NCBI GenBank assembly: GCA_001303705.1
Contig: LJUI01000060.1
Span: 1-13,873 of the forward strand
Reading direction: 5' to 3'
DNA from: a candidate division TA06 bacterium SM23_40
GTDB taxonomy: Bacteria > LJUI01 > SM1-40
Length of the DNA stretch: 13,873 nucleotides
The notes under the pieces were generated by a model that was given only the letters and a program-made list of their open reading frames with translations, was not told the DNA's origin and ran no database searches. Position 1 is the stretch's first letter, and each line of letters opens with the position of its first letter. A program made the position numbers and the translations under genes. Of this stretch, positions 675-8,763 are shown one piece after another.

Positions 675-1967
675 ATGGTGCATATAACGACAAGCAAGGG
701 AACGACTTTGGATGTCGTGCGCGCCGTGGCCGAGGCTGAAGGTGTCGATCTCGTCAAACTCGAGGCTGAAGTAGCAAAGGGAACCGTCGTCATCCTGAGG
801 AATCCCCGCCATAGAAATGTGAAGCCCATCGGTATCGGTAAGGGGCTCAGAACTAAGATCAACGCGAACATCGGTTCTTCACCGGACAACGCGGATCTCG
901 ATCTGGAAGTGGCGAAGTTGCGCGCGGCCATCGAGGCGGGCGCGGACACGGTCATGGATCTCTCGGTGGGCGGCGACATCGACAAGATACGGCGGGCGAT
1001 CATCGAAGCCTCCGAGGTCCCAGTAGGGACCGTTCCGATCTATCAGGCCGCCGTCGAGGCAGTGCGACAGGGGCGGGCCGCCCCTGAGATGTCGGGCGAC
1101 GATATGTTCCGGGCGATCGAGAAGCACGGTGAGGATGGAGTCGACTTCGTCACCGTACACTGCGGCGTGACGAGGGAGAGCGTGGGTCGTCTCAAGCGGG
1201 ACAAGCGGATCGCTAAGGTGGTCAGTCGGGGCGGGGCGATCCTCGTAGAGTGGATGGTATTGCACGACCGGGAGAACCCGCTGTACGAGGAATACGATCG
1301 GCTCCTGGAGATCGCCAGGAGCTACGATATGACGCTCAGCCTGGGCGACGGGCTCCGGCCTGGTTCGCTGGCCGACGCGTCAGATCGTTCCCAGATACAG
1401 GAATTGCTCGTCATCGGAGAACTCGTCGAACGTGCGCGGGAGCGCGGGATCCAGGTCATAGTAGAAGGGCCTGGACATGTCCCGCTCGATCAGATAGAAG
1501 CGAACGTCTTCCTGGAGAAGCGTGCCTGCCGTGAGGCACCATTCTATGTGCTCGGCCCTCTCGTCACCGATGTAGCCTGCGGCCACGATCACATCGCCGG
1601 GGCGATCGGCGGCGCGGTGGCGGCCGCGGCAGGGGCGGATTTTCTGTGCTATGTCACCCCTTCAGAACATCTGCGGCTGCCGACGGTCGACGATGTTCGG
1701 GAGGGTGTGGTGGCGTCGCGCATCGCGGCCCATGCGGGTGATCTGGCGAAAGGTGTTGCTGGTGCCTGGGATCGGGATCTGGAGATGTCCCGTATGCGAC
1801 GGAAACTCGACTGGGAAGGCATGTTCAGGCTGGCTATCGATCCCGACCGCGCGCGGGCGCTGCGCGAGGCCAGCCCGGCGTCGGAGAGCGACGTCTGCAC
1901 TATGTGCGGAGAATACTGCGCCGTGAAGAAGATGGCACCGCTCTTCGAGGACGGGCCCGATCTGTGA
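675..1967 (+). CDS. thiC: Phosphomethylpyrimidine synthase ThiC (short form)
   Basis: ThiC is a cytoplasmic radical-SAM enzyme that rearranges aminoimidazole ribotide to hydroxymethylpyrimidine phosphate for thiamine. The 430-residue protein has family landmarks in order: NANIGSS (about 63-69), GTVPIYQA, ENPLYEEYD, LSLGDGLRPGSLADASD, EGPGHVPLDQIEAN, TPSEHLRLP, and a C-terminal cysteine motif CTMCGEYC with Cys408, Cys411 and Cys415. His268 (EGPGH) and His332 (TPSEH) are the likely second-metal ligands. It belongs to the short class (about 430 residues, versus over 600 for E. coli ThiC). The start is ATG at 675 with GGAGGG 4 nt before it. Two oddities: the cysteine spacing is CX2CX3C rather than the long-form CX2CX4C, and the usually conserved APGYDHI segment reads ACGHDHI. 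A ThiC paralogue making hydroxybenzimidazole (BzaF type) is the main alternative; no cobamide genes are nearby, so ThiC is preferred. Confidence 0.9.
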   Translation: MVHITTSKGTTLDVVRAVAEAEGVDLVKLEAEVAKGTVVILRNPRHRNVKPIGIGKGLRTKINANIGSSPDNADLDLEVAKLRAAIEAGADTVMDLSVGGDIDKIRRAIIEASEVPVGTVPIYQAAVEAVRQGRAAPEMSGDDMFRAIEKHGEDGVDFVTVHCGVTRESVGRLKRDKRIAKVVSRGGAILVEWMVLHDRENPLYEEYDRLLEIARSYDMTLSLGDGLRPGSLADASDRSQIQELLVIGELVERARERGIQVIVEGPGHVPLDQIEANVFLEKRACREAPFYVLGPLVTDVACGHDHIAGAIGGAVAAAAGADFLCYVTPSEHLRLPTVDDVREGVVASRIAAHAGDLAKGVAGAWDRDLEMSRMRRKLDWEGMFRLAIDPDRARALREASPASESDVCTMCGEYCAVKKMAPLFEDGPDL

Positions 1968-5629: not shown

Positions 5630-7921
5630 GTGGAAAGCGCAGCGTCATTGAGACAGAAGGCGGCGAAGTACGTCCAGGAGGAGAAGTACGACCTGGCGAT
5701 CGAGGAGTACGAGAAAGTCCTCCAGCTCGAGCCTTCGGACGCAAGCGTCTACAACCATATGGGCGACATCTATCTCAAGAAGAACGAGAAAGACCAGGCG
5801 ATTGACGAGTACTATCGGGCGGTCGATGTCTATGTGAAGGAGGCCTACTACACCAACGCTATCGCTGTATGCAAAAAGATACTCCGCTGCGATCGAGATC
5901 GAGCCGATGTCTACGAGCAGCTCGGCCATCTCTATGCCAAACAGGGGTTGGTCGGCGAGGCGATCACCAACCTGATGGAGTTCGCCGACCGGCAGATGAA
6001 ACAGGACAATATGGACGGTGTGCTTCAGGCCTACCGCACGATGGTCGAGCTCACTCCTGAGAACATAGATGCACGAAAGCAATTGGTCGAGATGTATCTC
6101 TCCCAGGAGCAGGTTGATGAGGCGGTGAAGGAGCTGAGTGAGATCGCAGACCGGCTTCGAGAGCAGGGGAAGGACAGTGAGGTCCAGGCAATCGTTGAGA
6201 GGATCGAGTCGATTGCTCCCGGTGCCGGGGCGGCTGTCGCTGCCGGCGAGGCGCCCCCGGAGGTGACGCCTCCGGAGGCTGAGGTTGTGGCCGCGAGGGC
6301 CGAGCTCGGGGCCGGTGTGGAGGTCGCTGCACCGGAGGAAGAGCGGGCGCCGGAGATGGTGATTCCCGGAGAAGAGGAGGAGGCTCCAGCTGAGGCAGTT
6401 CCCTCTGAGGCAGCGGTCGCGCCGGAGGCGGTAGAGGTCGGTGCTCCCGAGGCTCGGGCAGAGCCAGAGGTGCTGCCGGGGGAGGCAGTGGTCGAGTTGC
6501 CAGAGGCGCCTGTGGGAGCTGAGGAACTGGCGGCGGGCGTGGTAGAGGAGCTGGCGACTGTGGAGGAGGGGGCGCCGGCGGCAGTCAGGCCGAGGATACC
6601 CGAAGCAGCCGATATCGAGGACTGGGGGGAGTGCGTGGAGATGGGTGACCTGCTCCTCGAGATCGGATCGGTCGATGAGGCAATAGACTACTTTTATCGC
6701 GCTGCGACAGGGTATTACGATGAGGGATCGTTCGAAGAGTCATGGCGCCTGTTCAGTAAGCTCGCCGAGCTCCGCCCCTTCGAGCTTCGCCCGCGTCAGA
6801 AGCTCGTGGAGATCGCGGTAGCGAACGAGGATGCTGAGGCGATGGTGATGGCCTATCTGGATCTCGGTGAGTGCCTGATGAGGCGGGGAGCTACTGAAGA
6901 GGCGGAGTCGATCTACAAGCGGGTGATTGAGATCGATCCCCGTAGTGAGGAGGCAATCGAGCGTCTCTCGGTCCTCGTCCCGGACGAGAGGTTTGTGCCT
7001 CCTGAGGCTGTTCCCAGGCCCGAGGCGGTTCCCGTGGCCGAGGCCGCCGGTCCGCCTGAGGCGATTGCACCTGAGGTGTTGGCACCCGAGGCTCCGCCTG
7101 AGGCAGCCGTACCCGCCGGGGCTGAGGCGCGGCCCGAGGCTGCACCGCCGCCTGAGGCGGAACCGGAGACGGCTGTGCCTCCTTCCATGGAGGAGTTCGT
7201 CGATCTGGGCAAGGCCCTTCAGCAGGAGCTCGCAGGCGAGATCGCGAAAGCCGACACCGGTGAGGCCAGGATTGAGATGAGTGACGAAGAGGGCATGCTT
7301 ACGCTGGAGCAGATGATCGAGGAATTCAAGGGAGGCGTGTGGCAGCATATTGACGAAGGGGACTATGCGAGCCATTATGATCTTGGCATCGCATACCGCG
7401 AGATGGGCCTGGTTAACGAGGCGATCTCGGAATTTCAGATCGCGAGCCGCGGCAAGGCGGAGGCGATCAAGTCATTCGAGATGCTCGGTACGTGCTTCAT
7501 CGACAAGGGAGAGATCGAGATCGCCATCCGTCAATTTGAGCGAGGGCTCGTGGTCGAGGGGCATCGGGAGGACGAGTACATCGGGCTCCACTATCACCTC
7601 GGTCGCGCGTACGAGCTTCAGGGCAAACTCGAGGATGCCCTGAGTCATTACGAGAACACCTACGTAATAGACATCGGGTTCGCTGACGTTGCGGAGAAGG
7701 TGGCGACCCTGCGTGAGGCAGTGAGTCAGGGTCGAGCGCGGGCTTCTGCGGAGGGGACCGAAGGGCCTCAGCCAGGTGCGGAGCCCGGGGCGGGGGCGGA
7801 GGAATCGGGCGAGCCTGCTGCGGGCGAGCCGGGCGACGTGACGTCGCGGGAGGAAGGACGTCCGGGAGAAAGGGGGGACGACACAGACAAGCCCAAGAAG
7901 GATCGGATCTCGTACGTATGA
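5630..7921 (+). CDS. Large three-block TPR protein with Pro/Glu/Ala-rich linkers
   Basis: The 763-residue protein has no signal peptide or membrane segment and is probably a cytoplasmic scaffold. Block 1 (about 4-196) holds five to six tetratricopeptide helix pairs, including KYDLAIEEYEKVLQLEPSD and ADVYEQLGHLYAKQG. Linker 1 (about 197-323) is low-complexity Pro/Glu/Ala/Val. Block 2 (about 325-450) has TPRs such as GSVDEAIDYFYRAATGYYDE and AEAMVMAYLDLGECLMRRGA. Linker 2 (about 451-519) repeats PEA units. Block 3 (about 520-703) has TPRs such as YDLGIAYREMGLVNEAISEF and YHLGRAYELQGKLEDALSHY. A Gly/Glu/Pro tail ends in the basic motif KPKKDRISYV. The start is GTG at 5630 after GAGAGGGGG (5612-5620); this is where the repeat pattern begins. 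Only 20 bp separate it from the AAA ATPase, suggesting a shared complex. Its partner and process are unknown. Confidence 0.85.
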   Translation: MESAASLRQKAAKYVQEEKYDLAIEEYEKVLQLEPSDASVYNHMGDIYLKKNEKDQAIDEYYRAVDVYVKEAYYTNAIAVCKKILRCDRDRADVYEQLGHLYAKQGLVGEAITNLMEFADRQMKQDNMDGVLQAYRTMVELTPENIDARKQLVEMYLSQEQVDEAVKELSEIADRLREQGKDSEVQAIVERIESIAPGAGAAVAAGEAPPEVTPPEAEVVAARAELGAGVEVAAPEEERAPEMVIPGEEEEAPAEAVPSEAAVAPEAVEVGAPEARAEPEVLPGEAVVELPEAPVGAEELAAGVVEELATVEEGAPAAVRPRIPEAADIEDWGECVEMGDLLLEIGSVDEAIDYFYRAATGYYDEGSFEESWRLFSKLAELRPFELRPRQKLVEIAVANEDAEAMVMAYLDLGECLMRRGATEEAESIYKRVIEIDPRSEEAIERLSVLVPDERFVPPEAVPRPEAVPVAEAAGPPEAIAPEVLAPEAPPEAAVPAGAEARPEAAPPPEAEPETAVPPSMEEFVDLGKALQQELAGEIAKADTGEARIEMSDEEGMLTLEQMIEEFKGGVWQHIDEGDYASHYDLGIAYREMGLVNEAISEFQIASRGKAEAIKSFEMLGTCFIDKGEIEIAIRQFERGLVVEGHREDEYIGLHYHLGRAYELQGKLEDALSHYENTYVIDIGFADVAEKVATLREAVSQGRARASAEGTEGPQPGAEPGAGAEESGEPAAGEPGDVTSREEGRPGERGDDTDKPKKDRISYV
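6215..6600 (+). repeat. Low-complexity Pro/Glu/Ala/Val-coding linker 1 of the TPR protein
   Basis: The translation is almost entirely Ala, Glu, Pro, Val and Gly for about 125 residues, with recurring units such as PPEV, APEAVEVG and PEAPVG. At DNA level it is an imperfect run of GAGGC/GAGGT-containing units. It likely forms a flexible acidic tether between TPR blocks 1 and 2, and such repeats may vary in length between strains. Confidence 0.7.
6985..7187 (+). repeat. Degenerate PEA-unit linker 2 of the TPR protein
   Basis: About 68 residues built on PEA motifs (VPRPEAVPVAEAAGPPEAIA and similar). The underlying DNA repeats CCTGAGGC and CCCGAGGC many times at irregular spacing. It separates TPR blocks 2 and 3, and the unit structure invites replication slippage. 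Confidence 0.7.
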
Positions 7922-7930
7922 TAGACGAGT

Positions 7931-7935
7931 AGGAG
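7931..7935 (+). promoter_or_regulatory. Ribosome binding site AGGAG deciding the ATPase start
   Basis: AGGAG abuts the ATG at 7936 directly but lies 6 nt before the ATG at 7942. The second spacing is functional and the first is not, so translation should start at 7942. That also matches ExeA-like proteins, which begin only a few residues before FYGL. Confidence 0.6.
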
Positions 7936-7941
7936 ATGTCG

Positions 7942-8763
7942 ATGGACGTTGAATCGTTCTACGGTCTGGCGGAGCCGCCGTTTTCAAGTGCTCCGGACGA
8001 GCGCTTCTACTACGACAGTCCACAACACTCTAAGGCCCTCATCAAGCTCATGCACGCGGCTGAGAGGATGGAGGGCCTTGTTACACTGGTGGGAGATATC
8101 GGCACTGGAAAGACGACCCTGGCCAGGAGGATGCTCGACATGCTCTCTGAACAGGGGAGCTTCGAGACGATCCTGTTGGTGATTATCCATCCCGAGATCA
8201 GTTCCTTCTGGTTTCTGCGGAAGGTCGCGGCTCTCCTCGGTGTCGATAGCCCCTCCGAGGAGAAGGGAGAGGTTGTCGCCGCGATGTACCGTGTCCTGCT
8301 CGATCTCCACGAGCGTGGGAGGAAACCGGTTGTTCTCGTCGATGAAGCGAATATGCTTCAGCGAAAAGAGCTCATGGAGGAGATCCGCGGGCTGCTCAAC
8401 ATTGAGCTTCAAGGCGGGCGCCTGCTCACATTCTTCCTCTTTGGCCTGCCGGATATGGAGGACTACCTCCGACTCGATGAGCCTCTCCAGCAGCGCATAG
8501 CCATGCGGTGTCGGCTGGACCCGCTGGAGCGGAAATCGGTTGGCGATTACATCCGCTACCGGCTCCAGGTTGCAGGCCGCGAGGACGAGCTGTTCACAGA
8601 TGACGCCATTGATCTTATCTCCGACTATTCCCAAGGTCGTCCGCGTGTGATCAACACGATATGCAATAATGCGCTTCTGGAGGGTGCGATTGAGGGCGCG
8701 CAGATCATCGAGAGAGAACTCATAGATTCGGTCGCTCGGGACCTCGACCTCGTTCGGGAATAG
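7942..8763 (+). CDS. ExeA/GspA-type AAA ATPase
   Basis: A 273-residue P-loop ATPase of the family typified by ExeA/GspA and MshM, which energise assembly of type II secretion or pilus parts; transposition helpers of the TnsC type are related. It starts with the family's VESFYGLAEPPFSSAPDERF segment. Walker A is GDIGTGKTT with Lys57, Walker B is VVLVDEAN with Asp134-Glu135, and the later LFGLPDMEDYL and PLQQRIAMRCRLDPL segments match the sensor/arginine region. The end, SQGRPRVINTICNNALLEGA, is the usual C-terminal helical lid. The protein stops after the ATPase domain: the transmembrane and peptidoglycan-binding parts of full ExeA are missing, so it is presumably cytosolic. The tight link to the TPR gene suggests the TPR protein is its partner. 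No secretin, pilin or transposase gene is in view, so the precise role is open. Confidence 0.88.
   Translation: MDVESFYGLAEPPFSSAPDERFYYDSPQHSKALIKLMHAAERMEGLVTLVGDIGTGKTTLARRMLDMLSEQGSFETILLVIIHPEISSFWFLRKVAALLGVDSPSEEKGEVVAAMYRVLLDLHERGRKPVVLVDEANMLQRKELMEEIRGLLNIELQGGRLLTFFLFGLPDMEDYLRLDEPLQQRIAMRCRLDPLERKSVGDYIRYRLQVAGREDELFTDDAIDLISDYSQGRPRVINTICNNALLEGAIEGAQIIERELIDSVARDLDLVRE

What the first reader, a model, noticed from the sequence alone, without database searches (positions are those of the whole stretch)
5630..8763. Three-block TPR scaffold paired with a trimmed ExeA-like ATPase: possible undescribed machine
Seen: a 763-residue TPR protein with two low-complexity acidic tethers and a basic terminal motif KPKKDRISYV, 20 bp before a 273-residue ExeA-type ATPase with intact Walker A and B but no membrane or peptidoglycan-binding part. 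Known: ExeA/GspA/MshM ATPases work with membrane partners in secretion or pilus assembly. Inference: here the TPR protein may replace the missing partner module. No secretin or pilin is close, so this may be a stand-alone pair with a different role.
Basis: partly seen in the sequence, partly recalled or inferred. Interest (0 to 1): 0.6.

Follow-up and report, generated by a model that had tools for sequence, protein, structure and literature searches.

The report
SgmX-like pilus activator with tail-docked ATPase
The two genes are a distant, deeply conserved version of the Myxococcus SgmX operon, which switches on surface pili at a cell pole, and its protein ends in a short tail, shared by relatives in many phyla, that is predicted to plug into the neighbouring ATPase, a partner whose job nobody knows yet.

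Summary
A 763-aa TPR protein (5630-7918) is followed at once by a 273/275-aa AAA_22 ATPase with intact Walker motifs and no membrane part. The pair is not a private or unknown machine. The TPR protein aligns in order with Myxococcus SgmX, the MglA effector that activates type IV pili: N-terminal block 11-197, C-terminal block 530-699 (in SgmX the MglA-GTP-binding region), then the last residues. The ATPase is 50% identical to the gene right after sgmX (MXAN_5765 type). The pair occurs in about ten phyla. Its ATPases form one clade (SH-aLRT 100), distinct from ExeA, PEP-CTERM and CheA/CheW-linked ATPases. It co-occurs with MglA (27/33 vs 79/257 genomes, p=2e-8); other ExeA-type ATPases do not. 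The window's genome has MglA, MglB, PilM and two PilB. AlphaFold, run on two natural loci, docks this tail as a beta strand on the ATPase. Best reading: an MglA/SgmX-type pole scaffold with a dedicated, tail-docked, TnsC-like AAA+ partner. The ATPase's role is unknown; deleting it in M. xanthus leaves pilus motility intact.

The parts
5630..7921 (+). SgmX-like TPR scaffold protein, 763 aa (GTG start)
   Evidence: NF052243 SgmX 1.1e-46 in two stretches; BLASTP to bona fide SgmX
5660..6220 (+). N-terminal TPR block, residues 11-197, aligns with SgmX 10-196
   Evidence: 30% identity, 2e-28
7217..7726 (+). C-terminal TPR block, residues 530-699, aligns with SgmX 840-1013, the region of TPR12-14 that binds MglA-GTP in M. 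xanthus
   Evidence: 33%, 4e-22; function in SgmX from PMC7668184
7889..7918 (+). C-terminal tail KPKKDRISYV, conserved docking motif [KR][IV][STG][YF][LIVM]-COOH
   Evidence: predicted strand on the ATPase in relatives
7942..8763 (+). SgmX-associated AAA+ ATPase, 273 aa (275 aa from ATG 7936), ExeA/TnsC-type, no membrane or peptidoglycan-binding part

Best explanation
The locus encodes an SgmX-type module. The TPR protein is a cytoplasmic scaffold. Its C-terminal TPR block is the counterpart of the SgmX region that binds MglA-GTP, and its N-terminal block is the counterpart of the SgmX part that activates type IV pili (recruitment of the extension motor PilB). Its last residues, RISYV, form a flexible tail that docks by strand addition onto the ATPase encoded next door, a TnsC/MuB-like AAA+ protein. 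Most likely, MglA-GTP places the scaffold at the active pole. The tail brings the ATPase along, and the ATPase's nucleotide-controlled self-assembly clusters, remodels or releases the scaffold there, tuning pilus activity. Shown by computation: homology, synteny, tail conservation, co-occurrence with MglA. Predicted: tail docking. Inferred only: MglA binding in this organism, pole localisation, and the ATPase's effect.
For: SgmX is the best NCBIfam hit, with colinear BLASTP blocks plus tail. The ATPase is 50% identical to the one after bona fide SgmX. 12/12 SgmX above the curated cut-off end ARKVGY[LV] and are followed by this ATPase. Upstream tail-bearing TPR gene in most of 120 loci; motif in 73/77 adjacent genes vs 12/1133 other ORFs, those 12 being second proteins of the same clusters, TPR where checked. 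ATPase clade SH-aLRT 100 with invariant H85, W92 and G152 absent from outgroups. MglA 27/33 vs 79/257, p=2e-8; other ExeA-type ATPases p=1. PilB over cut-off 27/33 vs 97/257, p=2e-6. TPR-ATPase-PilB-PilB gene order in two genomes. Own MglA matches crystallised MglA at 2e-85. AlphaFold: tail is a strand in L112 and in L130 beside an all-helical TPR domain. ATPase fold: TnsC Z 19, MuB Z 18; TnsB docks on TnsC by a C-terminal hook (PMC9371665).
Against: Inactivating mxan_5765 or mxan_5764 does not affect S-motility (PMC7668184), and a C-terminally truncated SgmX (mimB), which must lack the tail, still activates pili. So the ATPase and tail are dispensable for pilus activation in M. xanthus under laboratory conditions. 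The window TPR scores 160 bits against the SgmX cut-off of 1800. MglA is missing from 6 of 33 pair genomes. The AlphaFold chains were tethered by stop read-through, so the tail lacked its free carboxylate; tail confidence is moderate (10-residue block means 76 and 62, blocks that include disordered residues) and the partner strand could not be inspected.
Confidence: 0.62

Rival explanations
1. The ATPase belongs to an envelope or outer-membrane assembly task rather than to pili: in myxobacteria and relatives the operon continues with TamB and an Omp85/TamA protein, and the TPR protein docks the ATPase to that transporter.
For: SgmX-ATPase-TamB-TamA order in L135 and in M. xanthus (PMC3983030); the mxan_5765 knockout has no S-motility phenotype.
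Against: TamAB is not next to the pair in the window or among the recurrent neighbours of other loci, whereas TPR-ATPase is; two genomes have PilB next instead; MglA and PilB co-occurrence.
Confidence: 0.15
2. The conserved tail binds something other than the ATPase (a polar landmark, PilB, MglA, or the TPR domain of a neighbouring subunit), and the two genes are only co-expressed.
For: Tail docking is only predicted, and the partner strand was not seen. The tail resembles a PDZ class I ligand (own knowledge). Orphan ATPases without an adjacent tail protein mostly keep H85 and W92.
Against: Two AlphaFold models make the tail a strand, although the only other folded partner, the TPR domain in L130, is all helix. 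Where two TPR genes flank one ATPase, both carry the tail (L041, L042). The S/T-Y form of the motif is unique in the own genome.
Confidence: 0.15
3. One reading: a stand-alone secretion or pilus-independent machine, in which the TPR protein replaces the missing membrane partner of an ExeA-type ATPase.
For: No secretin or pilin in the window; the ATPase is of ExeA type without a membrane part.
Against: SgmX homology, MglA/PilB in the genome and co-occurrence, clade distinct from the long ExeA proteins.
Confidence: 0.06

Closest known systems
SgmX (MXAN_5766) - MXAN_5765 pair of Myxococcus xanthus
   Same: Same gene order, colinear N- and C-terminal TPR blocks, same C-terminal tail class (ARKVGYL in bona fide SgmX), orthologous ATPase (50% identity), MglA and type IV pili in the genome
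   Different: SgmX is 1060 aa with more central TPRs; the window protein is 763 aa with different linkers and scores far below the SgmX equivalog cut-off; no TamB/TamA genes follow; neighbours are hut, PHP and apgM genes as in WOR-3
Bdellovibrio Bd2490/Bd2492 (SgmX2/SgmX1)
   Same: TPR proteins placed in the MglA/RomR polar network; Bd2492 is needed for prey invasion (PMC3983030, PMC11025332)
   Different: [quoted passage not shown] bd2492 is co-transcribed with TamAB genes; whether an ATPase of this clade is present there was not tested here
MshM-MshN-MshE of the Vibrio MSHA pilus
   Same: ExeA-type ATPase beside a TPR protein and a PilB-type motor; mshM and mshN deletions also leave pili intact (PMC4624765)
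   Different: Gene order differs; MshM/MshN were not compared by sequence here; MSHA has its secretin and pilus genes in the same cluster
TnsC/MuB with the C-terminal hook of TnsB
   Same: Same AAA+ fold (Z 18-19); partner recruited through a short C-terminal peptide at the end of a disordered linker (PMC9371665)
   Different: DNA transposition; no sequence homology of the tails is claimed; DNA binding by the pair's ATPase is unknown
XrtA/PEP-CTERM-associated ATPase (TIGR03015)
   Same: Best NCBIfam model for the ATPase (185 bits)
   Different: Below cut-off 324.5

Membership tests
SgmX | NCBIfam NF052243 score above curated cut-off (1800 bits) | tested here: not met
   159.7 bits, E 1.1e-46, two stretches
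SgmX | N-terminal TPR block and C-terminal MglA-binding TPR block in the same order | tested here: met
   11-197 vs 10-196 and 530-699 vs 840-1013 of bona fide SgmX
SgmX | Gene followed by the MXAN_5765-type ATPase | tested here: met
   50% identity of the ATPases; 12/12 bona fide SgmX have it
SgmX | MglA and type IV pilus genes in the genome | tested here: met
   MglA/MglB at C51, PilB twice at C101, PilM at C22
SgmX | Binding to MglA-GTP and stimulation of pilus formation | not testable with these tools
   needs experiment
SgmX-associated ATPase clade (MXAN_5765 type) | Place inside the clade | tested here: met
   SH-aLRT 100 on the clade stem; window row inside
SgmX-associated ATPase clade (MXAN_5765 type) | Signature H85, W92, G152 | tested here: met
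ExeA/GspA | Trans-membrane segment and peptidoglycan-binding domain after the ATPase | tested here: not met
   ORF ends after the AAA_22 region; long ExeA-like proteins are a separate clade
XrtA/PEP-CTERM ATPase TIGR03015 | Score above cut-off 324.5 | tested here: not met
   184.8 bits

The most novel reading that the evidence does not exclude
A dedicated AAA+ regulator, recruited by a C-terminal tail, is an ancestral and general part of the MglA-SgmX polarity/type IV pilus system across about ten phyla. It was overlooked because deleting it in M. xanthus gives no gross motility defect. Its TnsC-like, nucleotide-driven assembly would add an active clustering or disassembly step to pole switching.
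Probability: 0.45. Interest if true: 0.75.

Novelty: new variant of a known kind. Interest (0 to 1): 0.58.

Why it matters
SgmX links the polarity switch MglA to pilus extension and has been studied in Myxococcus, with proposed homologues in Bdellovibrio. This work finds SgmX-like proteins, each with the same ATPase partner and the same docking tail, in WOR-3, Nitrospirota, Methylomirabilota, Gemmatimonadota, FCPU426 and others. It gives the neglected MXAN_5765 a physical hypothesis testable in one experiment. It also warns that C-terminal tags on SgmX may block a natural contact.

Tried and rejected
Defence system: no convincing PADLOC hit. Solved structure of a sequence relative of the ATPase: none at 1e-3. 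Tail as a motif shared by many proteins of the organism: the S/T-Y form has a single match in the genome, this gene; forms with F, G or A were not searched. Loss of H85/W92 in orphan ATPases as a test of the docking site: mostly retained, so uninformative. A supposed MglB-like gene near the pair in L124: no Pfam match, dropped. PilM co-occurrence is only marginal (30/33 vs 192/257, p=0.048). In one script loci on the minus strand were read on the wrong strand; corrected. The EMBO J. 2023 FrzS-SgmX paper is not held.

Full report
What is there. The window reads thiC, hutU, hutI, TPR gene, ATPase gene, PHP gene, apgM, purH, HEAT gene, all on the + strand. The finding concerns the TPR gene (5630-7921, GTG start, 763 aa) and the ATPase gene (7936- or 7942-8763). 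Both are as described. The start at 7942 (273 aa) fits homologues and the Shine-Dalgarno spacing better. The ATPase has PF13401 AAA_22, intact Walker A and B, and nothing else.

Identity of the TPR protein. Its best NCBIfam hit is SgmX (1.1e-46, below the strict cut-off). Against a bona fide 1060-aa SgmX (L222; 2092 bits, over the cut-off 1800) it aligns in order: residues 11-197 to SgmX 10-196, and 530-699 to SgmX 840-1013. In M. xanthus the last three TPRs of SgmX bind MglA-GTP, and SgmX promotes polar localisation of the extension motor PilB (PMC7668184, PMC7519303).

Identity of the ATPase. It is 50% identical to the ATPase directly downstream of that SgmX. In M. xanthus the gene after sgmX is MXAN_5765, called a putative Sec system ATPase, followed by TamB- and TamA-like genes (PMC3983030). 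L135 shows the same four-gene order, with TamB and Omp85 confirmed by Pfam. A tree of 71 ATPases puts the pair-type ATPases in one clade (SH-aLRT 100, stem length 0.97), apart from long ExeA-like proteins, a further group of short ATPases (taken here, by length and model hit, as PEP-CTERM-like) and a group beside CheA and CheW genes. Clade signatures are H85, W92 and G152, each invariant in 36/36 tail-partnered members and absent from 23 outgroup rows. The predicted fold is closest to ORC, TnsC and MuB (Z about 18-20).

The pair is ancient and constant. In WOR-3 the unit is tandem: hutI-ftcD-TPR-ATPase-TPR-ATPase-PHP. One WOR-3 locus (L113) reads hutU-hutI-(262-aa gene)-ATPase-TPR-ATPase-PHP-apgM, the window's neighbourhood with one extra pair (hut, ftcD, PHP and apgM names there are from clustering and reading, not from separate family scans).

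The tail. 73 of 77 complete upstream genes end in [IVL][STGA][YF][LIVMF], nearly always preceded by K or R. Only 12 of 1133 other ORFs do, and all 12 are second proteins of the same clusters, TPR where checked. All 12 bona fide SgmX examined end ARKVGY[LV] and are followed by the ATPase. In the window's own genome a DNA pattern for the S/T-Y form of the tail matches once, at this gene.

Does the tail dock on the ATPase? In several loci the two genes are in frame, so a natural read-through chain of tail, intergenic linker and ATPase could be modelled (stop read as Gly). In L112 the tail residues VSYL form a strand between disordered flanks (residues 1-11 and 24-50 below pLDDT 50). In L130, with the last TPR domain included, ISYL again forms a strand (residues 167-170) between flanks below 50, while the TPR domain is all helix; so the strand partner should lie in the ATPase. 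Confidence is moderate, the tail is tethered and the coordinates could not be inspected, so this is a prediction, not proof.

Link to MglA and pili. The own genome holds MglB and MglA after a RecR-like gene, the MglA matching solved MglA at about 2e-85, two PilB over cut-off in tandem and PilM. Over 290 diverse genomes, MglA is in 27/33 with the pair-type ATPase and 79/257 without (odds ratio 10, p=2e-8). Genomes with other ExeA-type ATPases only show no association (30/82 vs 76/208, p=1). These are raw Fisher tests, not corrected for phylogeny, though the genomes come mostly from different families. PilB over cut-off: 27/33 vs 97/257 (p=2e-6). In L061 and L067 two PilB genes follow the ATPase directly (MshEN plus T2SSE domains in L061).

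Mechanism. Most likely MglA-GTP recruits the scaffold through its C-terminal TPR block, the scaffold promotes pilus extension, and the tail carries a TnsC-like ATPase that can assemble with nucleotide and so cluster, remodel or release the scaffold. The comparison with TnsB, whose 15-residue C-terminal hook docks on TnsC at the end of a disordered linker (PMC9371665), is a mechanistic analogy only. Against a strong pilus role: inactivating mxan_5765 has no S-motility effect, MXAN_5763-5765 are likewise reported dispensable (PMC11580455), and the truncated SgmX mimB variant, which must lack the tail, is active. The ATPase may act redundantly, in fine control of polarity, or in another process.

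Verdict. It is a distant SgmX-type module with a newly recognised, widely conserved docking tail for a dedicated ATPase of unknown function.

Noticed in passing
L201:1609-5272 and similar loci L202, L203, L206, L212, L214, L216, L077, L078: A sister clade of the same ATPase family sits between a CheA gene and a CheW-domain gene (Pfam-confirmed in L201 only), suggesting that these AAA+ proteins also serve chemosensory arrays.
   Followed up: partly
L089:3413-8822 (WOR-3 chromosome CP070686.1): Tandem TPR-ATPase-TPR-ATPase array; the first TPR protein ends GENISFL, the second KSKITYL, so each ATPase has its own tail variant.
   Followed up: partly
L043-L056, L088, L132, L150, L158, L222-L233 ATPase C-termini: Many ATPases of the clade carry their own conserved C-terminal motif (D/A)EIDxxLxxL at the end of a probably disordered extension; the window's ATPase lacks it.
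   Followed up: no
L068 and L069 (G038, G183): Divergent clade members without an adjacent TPR gene whose own C-terminus reads KTPYL or KTAYL, resembling the tail motif.
   Followed up: no
window 675-1964: ThiC homologue that scores well for both ThiC and the B12 lower-ligand enzyme BzaB (562.8 bits, below BzaB cut-off 700), next to hut genes.
   Followed up: no
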